This document shows positions 4,721 to 20,405 of a DNA stretch of 64,000 bases, piece by piece. A program made the position numbers and the translations under genes. The stretch spans positions 1,844,976-1,908,975 of the forward strand of contig NZ_CP011514.1 in the NCBI RefSeq assembly GCF_001653795.1. The letters are read 5' to 3'. The stretch's first letter is position 1. Every line of letters begins with the position of its first letter. Below the pieces are notes generated by a model. It was not told the DNA's origin. It did not search any database and saw only the letters and a list, made by a program, of their open reading frames with translations. Origin of the DNA: Mitsuaria sp. 7 (GTDB taxonomy: Bacteria; Pseudomonadota; Gammaproteobacteria; Burkholderiales; Burkholderiaceae_C).

Positions 4721-6124
4721 TCAGCTGTGCTGTCTGCGGCGTTCGACCGCGTCGATGCGCAGCATCTGGCGGTACTTGGTCACCGTGCGGCGCGCCACCA
4801 CCAGGCCCTGGCGGGCGAGCTGGCGGGTGATCTCGGCGTCGGACAGCGGGTTGTCCGCGCGCTCGGCCTCGATGATGTCCTTGATCAGGCCGCGGATCGC
4901 GGTGCCCGAGCACGCGCTGCCGTTGCTGCTCACGATCGCGCGCGAGAAGAAGTACTTCAGCTCGTACACGCCGCTCGGCGTCGCGAGGTACTTGTTGTTG
5001 GTGACGCGCGAGACCGTCGACTCGTGGATGCCGACCTCGTCGGCGATCTCCTTGAGCCCCAGCGGCTTCATCGCCATCGCGCCGAACTCCAGGAAGTGGC
5101 GCTGGCGGCGCACGATCGCGTCGGCCACGTCCAGGATGGTCGAGAAACGCTGCTCGATGTTGCGCATCGTCCAGCGCGCCTCCTGCAGATGGGTCGCCAT
5201 CTCCGCATGTCCCTGCTGGCGATGCCGCTGGAACAGCTCGGCATAGACCTGGTTCATCCGCACCTTGGGGATCACCGCCGGATTCAGCTGCACGCGCCAT
5301 TGGCCGCGGACCTTGGTGGTCAGCACGTCCGGCACGATGTAGGCGGCCTGCGTGGTCTCGTAGCGCCAGCCCGGCCGCGGGTCGAAGCGGCGCAGCTTGA
5401 GGCACACGGCCTCCGCTTCCGCGACGCTCACGTCCAGCAGCTGCGCCAGCGACGGGATGTCGCGCGAGGCCAGCAGGTTCAGATGCTGCGAGATGACGCG
5501 CTCGGCCAGCAGGCGGCTGCGCGTGTCCTCGATCTTGGGCAGTTGCAGCAGCAGGCATTCGGCGACGCTGCGCGCGCCCACGCCCAGCGGGTCCAGGGCC
5601 TGCACGCGCTTGAGCGCGATCTGCATTTCCTCGATCGCCACCGTCGGCTGCATCTGCGCCACCGCCGCCAGTTCCTCCAGCGAGCTGCGCAGGTAGCCGT
5701 CGTCGTCCACCGACTCGGCCACGATGGTCGCCAGCACCAGATCGCGCGGCGACAGGCGCAGCACGTTGAGCTGGCTGCGCAGGTGTTCTCGCAGGCAGGT
5801 CTGCGCCGCGGTCATCTCCAGCGCGCTGAGTTCGCCGTCTTCGGCGCGGCGCATCGAGCCCGAGCCCTCGGCGCGCCAGATCTCGCGATCGTCCGGGAAG
5901 GATTCCGGCGCGTCCGACATCACCGGCGACGAGGCGACCGGCACATCGGCGTCCAGCGGCGACGAATCGTCCGAGCCTTCGGTCACTTCGAGGAAGGGGT
6001 TGCGCCCCAGCATGTCGGTGACCATGGTGGTGAAGTCCAGCGAGGACATCTGCAGCAGCCGCACGGCGTGCTGGAGGCGGGGCGACAGCGTCTGCGACTG
6101 CCTGTGCTCATGCCTGAGTTCCAT
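4721..6124 (-). CDS. rpoN: RNA polymerase sigma-54 factor RpoN
   Basis: Sigma-54 directs RNA polymerase to -24/-12 promoters and needs an AAA+ activator to open DNA. The 467-residue protein starts MELRHEHRQSQTLSPRLQHA, the conserved Gln-rich region I that contacts activators, followed by an acidic region II. The core-binding domain and a helix-turn-helix (LKEIADEVGIHESTVSRVTN) come next. The RpoN box ARRTVTKYRQ sits near residues 444-453, 14 residues from the end. An in-frame extension upstream of MELRHEH has no conserved content, so it was excluded. A matching activator with GAFTGA is encoded at 18119-19591. Confidence 0.97.
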   Translation of the reverse strand: MELRHEHRQSQTLSPRLQHAVRLLQMSSLDFTTMVTDMLGRNPFLEVTEGSDDSSPLDADVPVASSPVMSDAPESFPDDREIWRAEGSGSMRRAEDGELSALEMTAAQTCLREHLRSQLNVLRLSPRDLVLATIVAESVDDDGYLRSSLEELAAVAQMQPTVAIEEMQIALKRVQALDPLGVGARSVAECLLLQLPKIEDTRSRLLAERVISQHLNLLASRDIPSLAQLLDVSVAEAEAVCLKLRRFDPRPGWRYETTQAAYIVPDVLTTKVRGQWRVQLNPAVIPKVRMNQVYAELFQRHRQQGHAEMATHLQEARWTMRNIEQRFSTILDVADAIVRRQRHFLEFGAMAMKPLGLKEIADEVGIHESTVSRVTNNKYLATPSGVYELKYFFSRAIVSSNGSACSGTAIRGLIKDIIEAERADNPLSDAEITRQLARQGLVVARRTVTKYRQMLRIDAVERRRQHS

Positions 6125-6742
6125 TGCTCCCACTTGTGACACTCCTGTCCGGTAGAGGGTGAATCTGCCGACAACCGGTTCCGGAAAGTCCCCGCCGGCG
6201 AGGACGGGAACGGGTTGTAGGCAGTGCCGGCGAACCGGCCTGATGGAGCCATCAGCGCAAGGACCATGCCACCTCGTCCAGGAGGTTTCACATGGCGGAG
6301 CGCGCGTCATTCGGCGTGCCTGCCCGAAAGACGCAAACGCAGTAGGCACGGGGCCTGCCGGGGATACGGCGCATCGACGTGCGGCGAACCCGAACACCCC
6401 CGGATGCCACCGCGCCGGTTCGCCCAACGTCCGCGAAGCCCGCGCCGCCCCCGCTTCCTCGCAAGGCTTTCGGCACCTTTTACCGACGGCGGGATATGTC
6501 ACGCCCACCGAACGCCGCACCTCGCTTCTTCGGGAGTCCGAAGACCTCCGTGGGGCCGGAATGAGGCTGGGGGTTCGCGGACGCGATGCCCCCTGCCTCG
6601 TGGAGTGCCCGCGCCTGGCCGAACGCAGTCAGGGCCCGTGGTAGCGCTCCCTCCTGGCCCAGGCCTTGCTTCAACAGCCTGCCCGATCCCTCTCTCCGTC
6701 ATCCTTACCATCTTGCGCCCCTCCGCCCTGCCCCCGACCACG
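6125..6742. other. divergent intergenic region, rpoN / AI-2E permease
   Basis: About 620 bp between divergent starts. It holds the 76-nt structured element described at 6550-6625. Elsewhere I see no credible gene; the open frames are GC-driven and lack conserved content. Promoters for both flanking genes must lie here but none is clear by eye. Confidence 0.5.
6550..6625. ncRNA. 76-nt structured intergenic element, copy A
   Basis: Matches 18026-18101 without gaps, 69 of 76 identical. Element positions 14-18 pair with 46-50 and 20-24 with 40-44, making one long hairpin with an inner CGCG-GA-CGCG turn. Relative to copy B, position 16 G pairs 48 C (T-A in B) and position 22 G pairs 42 C (A-T in B), so pairing is kept by double changes. 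Coding strand and function are unknown. It could be a small RNA, a 5' leader or a repeated palindromic element. No T-run follows it. Confidence 0.5.
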
Positions 6743-8014
6743 ATGCGCCGCTGGGCGACGCGAGGCCTGCTCTTGATTGCGCTGGTCTTCCTGCTGAAGG
6801 AGGCCAGCGCCATCGTGCTGCCGGTGCTGGTGGCGCTGATCCTGACCTTCGTGTTGGCGCCCGCGGTGCGGACGATGCGTCACTCGGGCATCCCGGAGTC
6901 GGTGAGCGCGGCCATGCTGGTGACCACGGTGGTGGGCTGCACGGTGCTGAGCGTGGCGCTGCTGGCCGAGCCGGTGGCGCAGTGGTGGCAGCGTGCGCCG
7001 GTGGCGGTGTCGCAGGCCTTGAACCAGGTGGACAAGTGGCGGGCGGCGATTCCGGGTTTCGGTCCGCCGGTGGAGCGTCGCAATTCGAATCGCGCCGCGG
7101 CGCCGACGCCCCCCGCGGATCCGGTCCGGGAGCGCATCGCCAGCGAAGGCGTGGCGCTGACGGCGCAGGCGCTGGGCATCGGCCTGAAGTTTCTCGTGTC
7201 GACGGCCGCGACGACCATCCTGCTCTACTTCCTGCTCGCGTCCGAGCACTGGGTGCTGTCGCGCTGCATCGAGCTGCTGCCGCATCGTCCGCGCTTGCGG
7301 GCCGTGGTGCTCGGCGGCCTGCGCGCGGCGCAGCGCGACATCTCGCGCTATGTCGTCTCGGTCAGCGCCATCAACATCGGCGTCGGGCTGGTCGTGTCCG
7401 GCACGATGTGGTTCGTGGACCTGCCCAACCCCGGCTTCTGGGGCGCGCTGGCCGCGATCTTCAACTTCATCCCCTACCTCGGTCCGCTGATCATGTGCGG
7501 GCTGCTGCTGGCGGCGTCGCTCGCCGCCTCGCTCGGCGATGCGGGCCTGGCGGCCCTGTTCGCGCCGGTGCTGTCCTACCTCTGCATCCACGCGATCGAA
7601 TCCAACTTCGTGACCCCGATGGTCGTCGGCAAGCGGCTGTCGATGAACCCGCTGTCGGTGCTGCTCTCGGTGATGTTCTGGGGCTGGCTCTGGGGCGTCG
7701 CCGGCGCGGTGCTGGCGGTGCCGCTGCTGATCTGCCTGCGCAGCATCAGCCAGCGCAACCGGCAGATGCGCCCGGTCGCCGTCTACCTGCGCGGCAGCGA
7801 CCGCCCCTGCACGCCGCTGAGCACGCTGCTGCGCCCGCCCCGGCCGCCGCACGCGCCACCGCTCGTGCCCGGCTATGTGCCCGCGCACGTCGCGGCGACA
7901 GCCACATCGACGGCAGCGACCGCCACGACCACCGCGACGACCTCGCCCCCGCCCCTTGCCGATGGCGCCATCCCCGTGGCCCATCCGAACGCCCTTGAAC
8001 AGCACCGCCCATAA
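6743..8014 (+). CDS. AI-2E family (PerM/YdiK-type) membrane transporter
   Basis: A 423-residue inner-membrane protein of the AI-2E/TqsA/PerM family, whose members are described as autoinducer-2 exporters or ion antiporters; the substrate here is unknown. Two or three helices occur near the N-terminus (LLLIALVFLLKEASAIVLPV and the next segments). A soluble loop of about 100 residues and the C-terminal helix cluster with the family signature NFIPYLGPLI follow. The last 75 residues are Ala/Thr/Pro-rich and probably cytoplasmic. Start at MRRWATRG was chosen because the preceding in-frame residues read through the structured intergenic element. Confidence 0.88.
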   Translation: MRRWATRGLLLIALVFLLKEASAIVLPVLVALILTFVLAPAVRTMRHSGIPESVSAAMLVTTVVGCTVLSVALLAEPVAQWWQRAPVAVSQALNQVDKWRAAIPGFGPPVERRNSNRAAAPTPPADPVRERIASEGVALTAQALGIGLKFLVSTAATTILLYFLLASEHWVLSRCIELLPHRPRLRAVVLGGLRAAQRDISRYVVSVSAINIGVGLVVSGTMWFVDLPNPGFWGALAAIFNFIPYLGPLIMCGLLLAASLAASLGDAGLAALFAPVLSYLCIHAIESNFVTPMVVGKRLSMNPLSVLLSVMFWGWLWGVAGAVLAVPLLICLRSISQRNRQMRPVAVYLRGSDRPCTPLSTLLRPPRPPHAPPLVPGYVPAHVAATATSTAATATTTATTSPPPLADGAIPVAHPNALEQHRP

Positions 8015-16131: not shown

Positions 16132-16938
16132 GTGACTGCCTGGCTCGACGCCCCCCTCACCACCCTCTCCCTCCACGACCTCGATTTCTCGCGCGAGCGG
16201 CCTGACGGCCCCTCGCCGGGATCGTTGCGTCCGGCGGTGTTCCTCGACAAGGACGGCACGCTGGTCGAGCCCGACGACGCCGCCATCCACGATCCCTCGC
16301 GTCTGCGGCTGATGCCCGGCGCGGGCGAGGCGCTCGCGCGATTGAGCGCGGCGGGACTGGCGCTGGTCCTGGTCACCAATGAGAGCGGCATCGCGCGCGG
16401 CGCGTTCACGCGGGTCCAGTTCGCGCGACTGCAAGGCGCGTTGCTGCGCCGCCTGAAGGAGGAGTTCGGCGTGGTGCTCGACGACGTCGCGGTCTGCCCG
16501 CACGCGCCCGATCCCCAGGGCCGTCCGGCCTGCCTGTGCCGCAAACCCGCGCCCGGCATGCTCACGCGCGCGGCACGGGCGCACGGCCTCGATCTGAGCC
16601 GTTCATGGATGGTGGGCGACCTGCTCGACGACGTCGAGGCGGGCCATCGCGCCGGAGCCACGGGCCTGCTGCTGGACACCGGCGGCGAGACCGTCTGGCG
16701 CCGCTCGCCGCTGCGCGAGCCGGCGGGCGTCTTCAGCGACTGGCCGTCGCTGGCCGAGCACGTGGTGCGCGAGGCGGCGTCGACATCGCCGCCGCCGTCG
16801 TCGTCGTCGTCGAGCCTGTCGGCTTTGTCCTTGAAGGACGACGCGCTCGCCCCGCCGCTGAGCCGGATGAGCGCGACGTCGGCTTCTTCGACGATGGCCT
16901 CGATGACGCCGCCGGTTCCGGCGCAGGCGCAGGCGTAG
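16132..16938 (+). CDS. HAD phosphatase, GmhB/HisB-N-like
   Basis: A 268-residue HAD-superfamily phosphatase. Motif I FLDKDGTL holds nucleophile D39 and D41; motif II is VTNESGIARG; motif III/IV is VGDLLDDVEAG. The insert CPHAPDPQGRPACLCRKP carries the Cys/His zinc site typical of D-glycero-D-manno-heptose-1,7-bisphosphate phosphatase (GmhB) and histidinol-phosphate phosphatase. GmhB is the better guess because no his genes are near, but substrate is not proven. Translation starts with GTG. The last 60 residues are a Ser/Pro/Ala tail that family members lack, encoded where the topoisomerase gene overlaps from the opposite strand. Confidence 0.85.
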   Translation: MTAWLDAPLTTLSLHDLDFSRERPDGPSPGSLRPAVFLDKDGTLVEPDDAAIHDPSRLRLMPGAGEALARLSAAGLALVLVTNESGIARGAFTRVQFARLQGALLRRLKEEFGVVLDDVAVCPHAPDPQGRPACLCRKPAPGMLTRAARAHGLDLSRSWMVGDLLDDVEAGHRAGATGLLLDTGGETVWRRSPLREPAGVFSDWPSLAEHVVREAASTSPPPSSSSSSLSALSLKDDALAPPLSRMSATSASSTMASMTPPVPAQAQA

Positions 16939-17950
16939 CGACCTCCACGCGGGGCTGCGTCCGGAGCAACCCCATCAGACGCCGCTCCGCCGCGCTCAGG
17001 CCGGGCATCGCCGGCGGCGTGCTCATCCAGCGCTGCGACGGCAGGGACGCCAACGCTTCCGACTGGCCCCACGCCAGTACCGCGGGATGGATGTACGACT
17101 TGCGGCAGACCGCCACGGTATTGCCCAGTCGCGCGGCGACCTCCTTCACCGTCTGCTTCAGCGCGTCCACCGGCGCGGTGCCGGCGCGTGCGTGGTCCGA
17201 CAGCAGGTCGAGCGCCAGCACGCTTGCATGCCAGGTGCGGAAAACCTTCGCGCTGCACGTCGGTCCGCCGGCGGTGGCGAGCCAGTCGTTGACGTCGGAG
17301 GCATCGATGCGATGGGGCTCGCCGGCCTCGTCCTCGTAGCCGAACAGCTCCTGTCCGGGCAGATCGCGGCAGTGACGCACGAGCGCCGCGACGCGGTCAT
17401 CCCGGACGGCGAGCTGGTGGCGCACGCCGCTCTTGCCGGGGAAGCTCAGCAGCAGCGCGTCGCCCTTGACCTTCACATGCCGGCACAGCAAGGTGCTCAG
17501 GCCGTAGGAGCCGTTGCTGCGCGCGTACTCGCGATGGCCGATGCGCATCCAGGTGCGGTCGAGCAGGCGGACCAGCGCCGCGATGACGCGCTGGCGGTCG
17601 ACGCCGGTATCCCGTAGATGTCGTTGCACCTGCCGCCGCAGCCGGGGCAGGCGCTGGCCGAAGTCCAGCAGCAGGCCGAACTTGTTCTCGCCGCGCAGGG
17701 CCATCCAGTCCGCGTGATAGCGGTACTGCTTGCGGCCGCGGGCGTCACGCGCGGTGGCCTGGATATGGCCATCGTCACGCGTGCAGATCCAGACGTCCTC
17801 GTAGGCCGGCGGGATCGCCAAGGCGCGGATGCGCTGGAGCGTCGATGCATCGCGCACCGGCCGCCCCGCCGCATCGACATAACGGAAGCCCTTGGCTGCG
17901 CGCTTGCGGCGCAGCCCGGGTTCGCAATCGGACACCCAACGCAGTGACAT
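16733..17950 (-). CDS. DNA topoisomerase IB
   Basis: A 405-residue bacterial poxvirus-type topoisomerase that relaxes supercoils through a 3'-phosphotyrosine. The N-terminal beta domain includes GFRYVDAAGRPV and IPPAYEDVWI. Catalytic residues are Arg136 (WMRIGHREYA), Lys about 160-162 (RHVKVKGD), Arg238 and His241 (FRTWHAS) and Tyr286 (CRKSYIHPAVL). About 80 C-terminal residues form a basic Ser/Thr/Pro/Arg tail and overlap the HAD gene by 206 bp tail to tail. An upstream Met (18004) would extend into the structured element, so MSLRWVSD was taken as the start. Confidence 0.92.
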   Translation of the reverse strand: MSLRWVSDCEPGLRRKRAAKGFRYVDAAGRPVRDASTLQRIRALAIPPAYEDVWICTRDDGHIQATARDARGRKQYRYHADWMALRGENKFGLLLDFGQRLPRLRRQVQRHLRDTGVDRQRVIAALVRLLDRTWMRIGHREYARSNGSYGLSTLLCRHVKVKGDALLLSFPGKSGVRHQLAVRDDRVAALVRHCRDLPGQELFGYEDEAGEPHRIDASDVNDWLATAGGPTCSAKVFRTWHASVLALDLLSDHARAGTAPVDALKQTVKEVAARLGNTVAVCRKSYIHPAVLAWGQSEALASLPSQRWMSTPPAMPGLSAAERRLMGLLRTQPRVEVATPAPAPEPAASSRPSSKKPTSRSSGSAAGRARRPSRTKPTGSTTTTTAAAMSTPPRAPRARPATASR

Positions 17951-18025: not shown

Positions 18026-18101
18026 GTGGGGCCGGAATGATGCGGGAGGTTCGCGGACGCGATGCCTCCTGCATCGTGGAGTGCCCGCGCTTGGCCGAGC
18101 G
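18026..18101. ncRNA. 76-nt structured intergenic element, copy B
   Basis: Gap-free partner of 6550-6625, with seven substitutions. The same hairpin forms: GATGC / GCATC outside and GGAGG / CCTCC inside, with the CGCG-GA-CGCG core. It lies between the start of topoisomerase IB and the end of the sigma-54 activator gene, both on the minus strand. It could therefore be a leader of the former or a 3' element of the latter. The two genomic contexts share no obvious gene function, which argues for a dispersed element or stand-alone RNA. Confidence 0.5.
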
Positions 18102-18118: not shown

Positions 18119-19591
18119 TTACTGCGCAGCCTGGTCGGCGGCCGCCGCGTCTTCCGCCGCGTATTCCTTCAAGCGGTTGTAGAGCGTCTTCAGGCTGATG
18201 CCGAGGACGGCCGCCGTCTGTTCCTTGTGGTGCTTGTAGTGCTGGAGTGTGGCCAGGATGAAGGCCTTCTCCACCTGTGCCATCGAGCTGCCCAGCGGCA
18301 TCGTGATCGACGGACCGGAAGACTCCGCCGACGTCACGAAGGCCGGTGCCGTCGCGGGTGCCGCAGCGGTCGGGACGCCCACGCCGAAGCTGGTGACCGC
18401 CGCGGCGGACGAAGCCGTGGACTGCGGATCCACGCCTTCCCCCTTGGGCAGCCATTGCTCGTCGACGACATCGGCCACCGCCATCACATACGCGCGCTGG
18501 ACCGCGTTGCGCAGTTCGCGCACGTTGCCGGGCCAGTGGTAGGTCTGGAGCTGCGCCAAGGCCTTCGCGGTGAAGCGCTTGTTCTTGCCTTCCTTCGCCG
18601 CGATCTGGCGCAGGAAATGGTCGGCCAGCAGCGGCACGTCGTCCAGGCGGTCGCGCAGCGGCGGCATCTCGATCGGGAAGACGTTGAGGCGGTACAGCAG
18701 GTCCTCGCGCAGCTTGCCGGCCTGCACCGCCTGCAGCAGCGGGCGGTTGGACGCGGCGATGACCCGCACGTCGGCGTCCAGCGTCGTCGTCGAGCCCACG
18801 CGCATGAAGCGCCCGGTCTCAAGCACGCGCAGCAGCTTGACCTGCAGCTCCATCGGCATCTCGGTCAGCTCGTCGAGGAACAGCGTCCCGCCGCTCGCGC
18901 GTTCGAAGAAGCCCTCGTGCTGCTTGTCCGCGCCGGTGAAGGCGCCCTTCTCGTGACCGAAGATCTCGCTCTCGATCAGGTTGGGCGAGATGGCGCCGCA
19001 GTTGACCGCCAGGAAGGCCTTCTTGCGGCGACGGCTCAGGTCATGGACGGTCTGCGCGACCAGTTCCTTGCCCGTGCCGCTCTCGCCGTTGATGAACACC
19101 GACACGCTGGTGCCCGCCACGCGCGAGATCTGTTCGTAGATCCGCTGCATCGGCTGCGTACGGCCCCACAGCAGCCCGAAGTGGCCGGTGTTGGCCAGGT
19201 TGGCGTTGAGCTCCGAGACCTCGGCCTGCAGCGCCGCAGGCTTCATCACGCGCGACAGGACACCCTGCAGCTGCTTGATGTTGATCGGCTTGACCAGGTA
19301 GTCGGCCGCGCCCAGGCGCAGCGCCTGGATGGAGGTGTCCAGGCTCGCGTGGCCGGTGATCAGCACGACCTCGGAGTTGGCCACCAGCTGGGGATCCTGG
19401 AACAGCTCCATGCCGTTGCCGTCCGGGAGTTGCAGGTCCAGCAGCACCACGTCGGGCTGCTGCAGCGCAATGTGCCGGCGGGCATCGCGCAGGGTATGGG
19501 CCACCGACACGGTGAATTTCTCGCTCGCGATCAATTCCTGCAGGGTGGCGACGGAATCGATATCGTCGTCCACGATCAACGCATGGGTCAC
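18119..19591 (-). CDS. sigma-54-dependent NtrC-family response regulator
   Basis: A 490-residue activator in three parts. The receiver (about 1-120) has D52 in VLLDLQLPDGNG and K101. The AAA+ domain (about 140-370) has Walker A GESGTGKE (169-176), the sigma-54 contact GAFTGA (216-221) and Walker B-like GGTLFLDELTEM. A Fis-type helix-turn-helix (KEQTAAVLGISLKTLYNRL) ends it after a variable Ala/Ser/Thr linker. Start is GTG with AAGGATG upstream; no ATG suits the receiver fold. The partner kinase is not adjacent. It would act with the RpoN encoded at 4721-6124. Confidence 0.93.
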   Translation of the reverse strand: MTHALIVDDDIDSVATLQELIASEKFTVSVAHTLRDARRHIALQQPDVVLLDLQLPDGNGMELFQDPQLVANSEVVLITGHASLDTSIQALRLGAADYLVKPINIKQLQGVLSRVMKPAALQAEVSELNANLANTGHFGLLWGRTQPMQRIYEQISRVAGTSVSVFINGESGTGKELVAQTVHDLSRRRKKAFLAVNCGAISPNLIESEIFGHEKGAFTGADKQHEGFFERASGGTLFLDELTEMPMELQVKLLRVLETGRFMRVGSTTTLDADVRVIAASNRPLLQAVQAGKLREDLLYRLNVFPIEMPPLRDRLDDVPLLADHFLRQIAAKEGKNKRFTAKALAQLQTYHWPGNVRELRNAVQRAYVMAVADVVDEQWLPKGEGVDPQSTASSAAAVTSFGVGVPTAAAPATAPAFVTSAESSGPSITMPLGSSMAQVEKAFILATLQHYKHHKEQTAAVLGISLKTLYNRLKEYAAEDAAAADQAAQ

Positions 19592-19605
19592 CGGTTCATC
19601 CTTCG

Positions 19606-19649
19606 TTCTGGGAGAGTTCTGGGAGAGTTCTGGGAGAGTTCTGGGGAGT
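19606..19649 (-). repeat. 11-bp tandem repeat in the leader of the sigma-54 activator
   Basis: TTCTGGGAGAG occurs three times head to tail, followed by a degenerate fourth copy (TTCTGGGGAGT). The array ends about 15 bp before the GTG start, so on the minus strand it lies in the 5' leader. It could bind a regulator or vary in copy number and tune translation; this is inference. Confidence 0.7.
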
Positions 19650-19905
19650 GGGGTCACATCGCGGAGTTCAGCGTTTCGTGAACTAGGTCCACTGAACTCG
19701 TCTAACTCATTCTTGCAGCAAGCGGCCAGCTTGCCAGCCCCTTGACGGATTGATTTGAAAAATATTCCGGTGAGCGCTGGTCGATGAGCGTCCATGCGGA
19801 AACGACATGCGAACAACAAGCCCCACAAAACGACACCGGCAGCGGTTCGAGAACCACGCCGGTGCCGGTGAACGGTCTGCGGGACCGCGGAAGACAACGG
19901 GGACG

Positions 19906-20253
19906 TCAGGCATCCCGACGGCGTCGCTGGACCCACCCCACCAAGGCCAAGGCGACGACCAGGGTGAAGAAGTTGCGGATCTCGAACGACGTGCCGGACG
20001 GCTCGCTGTCGGCGTCGATGACGGAGGACGGGCTCGGCGACGCAGAGGTGCCCGTCGACGGCGTCTGGCCCTGCGGGGCGGGACGGACACCGGCGGGAGC
20101 GTGGTGGGAAGGGCCGTTCGCCGGGGCCGCGGCCTCCGGACGGACCAGGGCCGCGAGCTTGGCACCCTCCAGGAAACTGCCGGAGCTTTCCGCGTGGGCC
20201 ACGGTGGCGGCCAACATCAGCGGGATCGCCCAGGCGAGCTTGTGCAGGTGCAT
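19906..20253 (-). CDS. small exported protein with C-terminal membrane anchor and Arg cluster
   Basis: A 115-residue protein. It has a clear Sec signal (MHLHKLAWAIPLMLAATVAHA, cut about residue 21), a Pro/Ser/Ala-rich middle and a C-terminal hydrophobic helix ending RRRRDA. This three-part end resembles protein-sorting tails of the PEP-CTERM or rhombosortase type, but no VPEP or GG motif precedes the helix. AGGAGG seven bases upstream decides the start at 20253. Function is unknown. It is encoded upstream of the sigma-54 activator on the same strand. Confidence 0.65.
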   Translation of the reverse strand: MHLHKLAWAIPLMLAATVAHAESSGSFLEGAKLAALVRPEAAAPANGPSHHAPAGVRPAPQGQTPSTGTSASPSPSSVIDADSEPSGTSFEIRNFFTLVVALALVGWVQRRRRDA

Positions 20254-20405
20254 GAAAACCTCCTGTAATGGAAACGCAGCGCGGCCGGACATCCGCCCGG
20301 TCGTCGCAGTCGCCGAGCGTCCACGCGCGGCTCGCACCAGAGGCAAGCACCGTGCCCGGACGAACGTCCTGTGACGATTTCGTTTCCCGCCAGAAGGTCA
20401 GGAAT

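What the first reader, a model, noticed from the sequence alone, without database searches (positions are those of the whole stretch)
6550..6625. Two-copy 76-nt intergenic element with covarying stem (copy A; partner at 18026-18101)
The copies align without gaps, with seven substitutions. Four of the seven form two complementary pairs in the same predicted stem: element positions 16-48 change G-C to T-A and positions 22-42 change G-C to A-T. Chance would not favour paired changes. Both copies lie outside genes, in unrelated contexts. I do not recognise it as a known RNA family. It could be a dispersed small RNA or leader motif of this lineage.
Basis: seen in the sequence. Interest (0 to 1): 0.8.

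Follow-up and report, generated by a model that had tools for sequence, protein, structure and literature searches.

The report
Dispersed REP-like hairpin repeat in Roseateles
The two matching stretches belong to a family of about 40 short repeats in this bacterium's genome that keep the same hairpin by paired mutations; they look like a new kind of small mobile repeat that also serves as a landing pad for a larger jumping gene.

Summary
But the family is larger: 37 uninterrupted and 3 split matches in this genome, and copies in 8 of 16 genomes of the genus (Roseateles/Mitsuaria), 0 of 44 others. Between orthologous sites 159 pair changes are double-sided, 21 one-sided, 41 involve a mispair. 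G·T lies almost only on the + strand, so one strand is the folded one. Sites lie at gene 3' ends, rarely between divergent genes, without significant orientation preference; 'leader' or 'sRNA' is not supported. An IS3-family element has its three genomic copies inside the hairpin loop. This is REP-like, but the unit is longer, a REP-type head (GTGG) stands in only 102 of 153 copies, and no intact-looking or element-flanked RAYT transposase was found. One gene carries a copy in frame in 6 of 16 genomes. Most likely: a new REP-like, non-autonomous element recognised as single-stranded DNA, mobiliser unknown. An RNA role is not excluded.

The parts
6523..6632 (+). copy A, approximate full extent (less conserved 5' part GNAGTCAGCGAGTGC and 3' part GCGNAGTC included; ends approximate)
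   Evidence: column conservation around 31 own copies and 90 copies; 8 of 9 places matching the 5' part with up to two mismatches lie at copies
6551..6614 (+). copy A, 64-nt core TGGGG...GCCCGCGC
6561..6601 (+). copy A inner hairpin: arms 6561-6578 and 6583-6601, T·T mismatch 6568/6594, loop GGAC 6579-6582, bulge 6587
6553..6610 (+). copy A outer helix GGGC 6553-6556 with GCCC 6607-6610
   Evidence: double-sided changes in L323/L301/L316 and L337
18027..18090 (+). copy B, 64-nt core
18037..18077 (+). copy B inner hairpin (same columns as copy A; G·T in place of the T·T)
4721..6124 (-). rpoN (sigma-54), left neighbour of copy A
   Evidence: Pfam
6743..8014 (+). AI-2E family transporter gene, right neighbour of copy A
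   Evidence: Pfam
16733..17950 (-). topoisomerase IB gene, left neighbour of copy B
   Evidence: Pfam
18119..20350 (-). open frame holding a sigma-54-interacting response regulator, right neighbour of copy B (true start not determined, inside this frame)
   Evidence: Pfam

Best explanation
The 76-nt stretch is one copy of a dispersed, non-autonomous REP-like hairpin element found in part of the genus Roseateles/Mitsuaria. Shown: about 40 copies; a two-part hairpin (4-bp outer helix; internal loop with conserved CGGA and GGAG; 17-pair inner stem with mostly kept T·T and T·G positions; GGA loop); the + strand is the structural strand; copies lie near stop codons and are rare between divergent genes; presence varies between species at one site; at fixed sites the stem changes mostly in pairs while most other core columns hardly change; an IS3-family element inserts into the loop. 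Inferred: the + strand hairpin is recognised as single-stranded DNA by an enzyme that spreads the element (not identified; the two Y1 protein families seen in the genus look altered and are not flanked by the element), and the conserved unpaired bases are its contacts. Selection or continued copying then keeps the structure. The 3' location and the rare gene insertions are what the host tolerates.
For: Copy number. Restricted spread: 8 of 60 genomes, all same genus; 72 stretches, all in records named Roseateles, Mitsuaria or MAG Rubrivivax PMG_223; no match in the plasmid and phage collections. Covariation; at orthologous sites; stem divergence tracks flank divergence while 25 other core columns stay at 0.5-2.1% (columns 36, 50, 55, 62, 74, which do vary, were left out). 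One structural strand: G·T 315, A·C 5 (265 of the 315 sit at two column pairs, 30/68 and 42/56). Head GTGG in 102 of 153 copies fits the GT(A/G)G head of REPs (PMC2817692, passages). Site choice: convergent 35, tandem 39, divergent 4 of 90 sites; median 47 nt after the stop codon where the left gene points at it, against 158 tandem, 46 divergent, 38 convergent gaps in 72 loci and 14, 8, 2 in the window. Presence/absence at one site. IS landing: the 3 IS copies found are all in the loop, with 3-4 bp duplications read by eye; domains rve and HTH_21; relatives annotated as IS3 family. In-frame gene insertion. REPs as IS targets, including IS3-family members: PMC1525189 (abstract and passages).
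Against: No mobiliser was found. The Y1 (PF01797) proteins aligned have H-Y-E in place of HUH (3 proteins) or Ser (10) or Ala (1) at the usual Tyr position (by eye); Y1 genes occur in element-free genomes too; 18 such loci hold no convincing copy (best E 0.23). No clear strand bias with replication: 18-22 against 15-19 for several ori/ter choices (skew). No clean empty site was obtained. GTGG is not invariant, CTGG stands in 36 of 153. No two copies on the main contig lie closer than 5.2 kb, so no REP dimers. Folded as DNA the + strand is only modestly more stable than shuffles (z -1.9 and -2.2), as RNA more clearly (z -3.0 and -4.1). G·U tolerance fits RNA as well as DNA.
Confidence: 0.62

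Rival explanations
1. A dispersed regulatory RNA element: the + strand is transcribed in 3' untranslated regions and the hairpin with three GGA motifs outside the helices (columns 26-28, 47-49, 70-72) binds a protein, for example CsrA/RsmA (motif recalled, no call), or protects mRNA 3' ends.
For: Wobble pairs almost on one strand only, 315 against 5; + strand folds better as RNA than - strand (-43.4 vs -34.0 and -44.3 vs -32.3 kcal/mol); GGA in the loop in 152 of 153 copies; copies lie a median 47 nt after stop codons that face their 5' side (n=94); pairing mostly kept at orthologous sites.
Against: No significant orientation preference in tandem gaps (22 sense, 17 antisense, p=0.52); patchy presence between species; in the GGA at 70-72 the middle base is A in 13 and C in 3 of 153 (column 71); no Rfam match.
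Confidence: 0.2
2. The paired changes come from DNA processes alone: swapping of whole hairpins between copies by gene conversion, or template switching between arms, without selection for the structure.
For: Several stem pairs are statistically linked; many copies have an identical or near-identical core elsewhere in the same genome; in G013 copies look homogenised (identical hairpin in 62% of samples of 14 of its own copies against 14-38% for four other genomes); up to five paired changes at one orthologous site.
Against: In G000, G005 and G009 own copies are no closer than copies of other genomes, or only marginally so; arm-to-arm correction should remove the T·T mismatch, kept in 131 of 153; orthologous hairpins are closer (5.2) than paralogs (8.4) or unrelated copies (8.9); swapping alone does not explain where paired variants arise.
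Confidence: 0.1
3. A MITE left by a DDE transposon, perhaps of the IS that sits in the loops.
For: Small, repeated, mostly non-coding, without its own gene.
Against: No inverted ends seen in the consensus, and it does not resemble the IS ends (by eye); the IS was found in 1 of 17 genomes, the element in 8 of 60.
Confidence: 0.05

Closest known systems
REP/BIME palindromic units (GTAG and CGTC superfamilies)
   Same: imperfect hairpin, dispersed, mostly extragenic, copy number variable within a genus, paired changes in the stem, target of site-specific ISs; a GT(A/G)G-type head (GTGG) in 102 of 153 copies (PMC2817692, PMC3733652, PMC1525189: passages, and abstract of the last)
   Different: 64-nt core within about 110 nt instead of 20-40 bp; outer plus inner helix; head not invariant; no dimers; about 40 copies here
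CGTC-tagged REPs, which apparently lack a dedicated transposase
   Same: no flanking RAYT although Y1 genes exist in the genome (PMC3733652 passages; here)
   Different: no CGTC at the 5' hairpin foot; other sequence and structure
Rickettsia palindromic elements (RPE, about 150 bp)
   Same: repeated palindromic elements of similar size, some in frame inside genes (PMC10969869 passages; here)
   Different: here mostly extragenic (8 of 90 sites called in genes)
IS1397/ISKpn1-type ISs that insert into palindromic units
   Same: IS3-family type transposase; the three copies found lie inside the hairpin loop
   Different: different palindrome; 1 of 17 genomes searched carries it

Membership tests
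REP (GTAG/CGTC) superfamilies | unpaired GTAG-type (GT(A/G)G) or CGTC tetranucleotide at one foot of the hairpin | tested here: inconclusive
   GTGG at the foot in 102 of 153, CTGG in 36, others 15; its last G pairs in the outer helix; GTAG occurs anywhere in 3 of 153 aligned copies, CGTC in 43
REP (GTAG/CGTC) superfamilies | dispersed extragenic palindrome of 20-40 bp | tested here: inconclusive
   dispersed and mostly extragenic but longer
REP/REPIN-RAYT systems | a RAYT gene flanked by inverted copies, with HUH and Tyr residues | tested here: not met
   18 Y1 loci hold no convincing copy (best E 0.23); residues altered in the 14 genus proteins aligned (the frame of L155 was not recovered); PF01797 only, in 21 genomes
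MITE | terminal inverted repeats and target duplications | tested here: inconclusive
   no inverted ends seen in the consensus; no clean empty site
Rfam RNA families | score above a curated threshold | tested here: not met
   0 matches in the window; best match of one copy E 4.7, 16.2 bits against a cut-off of 40
Rickettsia palindromic elements | repeated palindrome inserted in frame in genes | tested here: inconclusive
   shown for one gene in 6 of 16 genomes; homology to RPE sequences not tested
palindrome-targeting IS (IS1397-like) | IS3-family transposase with insertions in the palindrome | tested here: met
   3 of 3 copies found are in the loop, 3-4 bp duplications; kinship to IS1397 itself not tested
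CsrA/RsmA-binding RNA | transcribed GGA hairpins bound by CsrA | not testable with these tools

The most novel reading that the evidence does not exclude
A new class of genus-specific hairpin element, maintained copy by copy at fixed chromosomal sites, whose stems keep changing as matched pairs about as fast as their surroundings while most other core bases stay almost frozen. It is spread by an enzyme that is not a Y1/RAYT transposase, or kept because the transcribed hairpins titrate an RNA-binding protein such as CsrA.
Probability: 0.25. Interest if true: 0.75.

Novelty: new variant of a known kind. Interest (0 to 1): 0.55.

Why it matters
It adds a REP-like family in Burkholderiales (lineage) with unusually clear structural evidence and no visible RAYT partner, which bears on how REPs without a dedicated transposase spread and why hosts keep them. 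The orthologous-site data (159 double-sided, 21 one-sided, 41 mispair-involving changes) make the choice between selection in place and hairpin exchange testable. The loop-specific IS offers a natural probe of whether the hairpin forms in vivo.

Tried and rejected
Rfam: nothing. RAYT as mobiliser: genes exist but look altered, are not flanked by the element, and occur in element-free genomes. Plasmid or phage carriage: no match. Independent 5'-flank repeat: 8 of 9 places with up to two mismatches lie at copies, so it is part of the element. Sense-strand preference: an early tally seemed to favour sense, but it counted copies inside genes as tandem; on 90 de-duplicated sites it is 22 against 17. 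Replication strand bias: none clear. Whole-hairpin swapping as the sole explanation: neither shown nor excluded. Copies inside genes were scanned by open frame, which is uninformative in GC-rich DNA; only the FAD monooxygenase case was aligned with relatives. A count was off by one column and was redone.

Biases: the 72 named stretches were found by a pattern that fixes most of columns 19-44, so counts are biased on the 5' arm; 9 of the 40 rows come from them. Searches use 153 copies taken from model and BLAST hits instead, but decayed copies are still under-represented (a degraded one is visible in L134). I fetched 117 stretches of relatives and 3 further own ones, not all hits, whose list was itself cut; 157 loci were aligned and 4 (L031, L032, L033 split by the IS, L037 weak) left out. 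The 92 orthologous comparisons come from 40 site clusters and are not independent. The gene caller is my own, trained on the window.

Literature: (Roseateles or Mitsuaria with repeat terms) found 0 papers; one search found 3, seen as a listing only, unrelated by title.

Full report
OBSERVATION. The window lies at G000:C1:1844976-1908975 of a 6.09-Mb genome in two contigs. A BLAST search with copy A lists 40 matching pieces; a covariance model built from 40 copies (31 of them own) finds 39 at E<=0.01. Two of those 39 are halves of copies split by an insertion; with the third split copy, seen by BLAST only, that makes 37 uninterrupted matches (one of them weak, C1:4924841) and 3 split ones. Three of the 37 lie on the 263-kb second contig. 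That the genome is a Roseateles/Mitsuaria is inferred: the genomes called same genus share the element, and the named records with it bear those names.

ANATOMY. In 31 own copies the core TGGGGCCGGARTG...GTGGAGWGCCCGCGC is 63-64 nt; clear conservation reaches about 18 nt upstream (GNAGTCAGCGAGTGC), weakly 28, and about 15 nt downstream. RNAalifold gives a long inner stem and a short outer helix. For the 21-pair structure tested on 40 copies, 99.2% of cells are standard pairs and 100 cells change on both sides against 35.2 in shuffles, 0 of 500 reaching it; sliding partners by 1-3 columns leaves 1-7 double-changed cells; the measure of further pair types is weak (38 of 500 shuffles reach it). 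Because 9 of those 40 rows came from a pattern search that fixes much of the 5' arm, I repeated the count on 153 copies from six genomes aligned with a sequence-only HMM: 3310 of 3360 cells over 22 pairs are standard, and 16 of 22 pairs (counted by hand from the table) show double-sided changes. The outer helix, invariant in the first set, now shows G-C to C-G at 21/78 together with G-C to A-T at 23/76 in L323, L301 and L316 (possibly one orthologous site), and A-T at 23/76 in L337. Column pair 36/62 is T·T in 131 of 153; 30/68 and 42/56 are T·G in 145 and 120. G·T cells number 315 (265 of them at those two places), A·C cells 5: the + strand is the structural one. GGA stands in the loop in 152 of 153, and at columns 26-28 and 70-72 (column 71 is A in 13, C in 3). 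GTGG precedes the hairpin in 102 of 153 copies, CTGG in 36. As RNA the + strands of the two window copies fold at z -3.0 and -4.1, as DNA at -1.9 and -2.2.

EVOLUTION AT FIXED SITES. Using flanks only, 92 comparisons between genomes fall in 40 orthologous site clusters, 33 of which hold more than one core sequence; the comparisons are not independent. They contain 159 double-sided pair changes, 21 one-sided ones and 41 that involve a non-standard state. Stem divergence follows flank divergence (5.7 vs 7.6%, n=30; 12.7 vs 12.4%, n=34; 18.7 vs 18.9%, n=28), while 25 other core columns stay at 0.5, 0.7 and 2.1%. Columns 36, 50, 55, 62 and 74 were left out of those 25 because they vary (50, 55 and 74 in 32, 39 and 33 of 92 comparisons). 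So stems change nearly as fast as their surroundings and mostly keep pairing. Hairpins at orthologous sites differ by 5.2 positions on average, paralogs by 8.4 and unrelated copies between genomes by 8.9; one genome (G013) looks homogenised, the three with most copies do not. Both compensation in place and exchange between copies may contribute.

DISTRIBUTION. 8 of 60 genomes have matches at E<=1e-4, all in the genus (8 of its 16), with 1 to 57 copies; 0 of 44 outside. In 250 genomes drawn from the family only the own genome matched, with stricter filters. A pattern scan of the species-level genome collection found 72 stretches, all in records named Roseateles, Mitsuaria or the MAG Rubrivivax PMG_223; near relatives of the window's genome may be left out there. 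Plasmid and phage collections gave nothing. At site B some relatives carry a copy and others none; the intergenic DNA is too diverged for an exact empty site.

CONTEXT. After merging orthologs, 90 sites divide into convergent 35, tandem sense 22, tandem antisense 17 (p=0.52), divergent 4, inside genes 8, unclear 4, by a codon-usage gene caller of my own. Gene gaps of 60 bp or more in 72 loci were 158 tandem, 46 divergent, 38 convergent, element-bearing gaps included; in the window 14, 8 and 2. The median distance from a facing stop codon is 47 nt on the 5' side (n=94 copies) and 34 nt on the 3' side (n=87). Copy A is one of the rare divergent cases. In an FAD-binding monooxygenase-like gene (Pfam FAD_binding_3) the element is in frame in 6 of 16 genomes and encodes about 23 residues (VGPEWGLGVQEGSPMPRGEPAPG and near variants); the other 10 lack it. 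There is no clear bias with respect to replication: 18-22 copies one way, 15-19 the other, depending on the assumed origin and terminus.

INSERTION SEQUENCE. The 1454-bp insert in the three split copies has rve and HTH_21 domains, plasmid relatives annotated as IS3 family, and ends TGAAGTG.../...CACTTCA. It lies at the GGA loop in all three, with target duplications GAG, GAG and GACG read by eye, and in both orientations. These are the only copies found in the genome at E<=1e-50, and 16 other genomes have none. Copy L034 carries 15 nt identical to the right end of this IS, 8 of which the element itself supplies; a deletion scar is the likely reading. Insertion of IS3- and IS110-family elements into REPs is known (PMC1525189, abstract and passages).

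MECHANISM. [quoted passage not shown] Here the own genome has one Y1 (PF01797) protein, with H-Y-E where HUH is expected; of the genus proteins aligned, 3 have H-Y-E and 11 of a second family have Ser (10) or Ala (1) where the catalytic Tyr is expected (by eye, residue roles recalled). None of 18 Y1 loci holds a convincing copy, and Y1 genes occur in element-free genomes. I therefore infer, without direct evidence, an unidentified enzyme reading the + strand hairpin as single-stranded DNA. The RNA reading remains the main rival because G·U tolerance, the better RNA folding and the GGA loop fit RNA; the lack of orientation preference is the main evidence against it.

VERDICT. The finding is real and larger than described; the sRNA/leader reading is not supported; a REP-like element of a new kind is the best filing. 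Membership of a named REP superfamily is open (head test inconclusive, RAYT flanking not met).

Noticed in passing
L133, L135, L138 (site B in relatives): A second palindrome-like sequence, close to CCCTCTCCCGCAAGCGGGAGAGGG, stands at or near the place where other species have the element.
   Followed up: no
L038 (C1:4129453-4129755) and L154-L169: Two Y1_Tnp families recur across the genus and look catalytically altered (H-Y-E; Ser or Ala for Tyr), suggesting domesticated proteins.
   Followed up: partly
L031, L032, L033 (C1:388088-389541, 3739220-3740673, 4668722-4670175): A 1454-bp IS3-family element whose three genomic copies all sit in the loop of the hairpin.
   Followed up: yes
L034 (C1:2880787-2880889): Copy with an apparent scar of that IS in its loop.
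   Followed up: partly
L017 and orthologs L242, L326 (C1:5558738): Element lies between a C-terminal membrane-anchor-like end and a thioredoxin-like domain (both by eye) with an open frame across; a gene fusion is possible.
   Followed up: no
L036 (C1:3578697): Short tandem repeats GCAGGCCTTCCC directly downstream of the copy.
   Followed up: no
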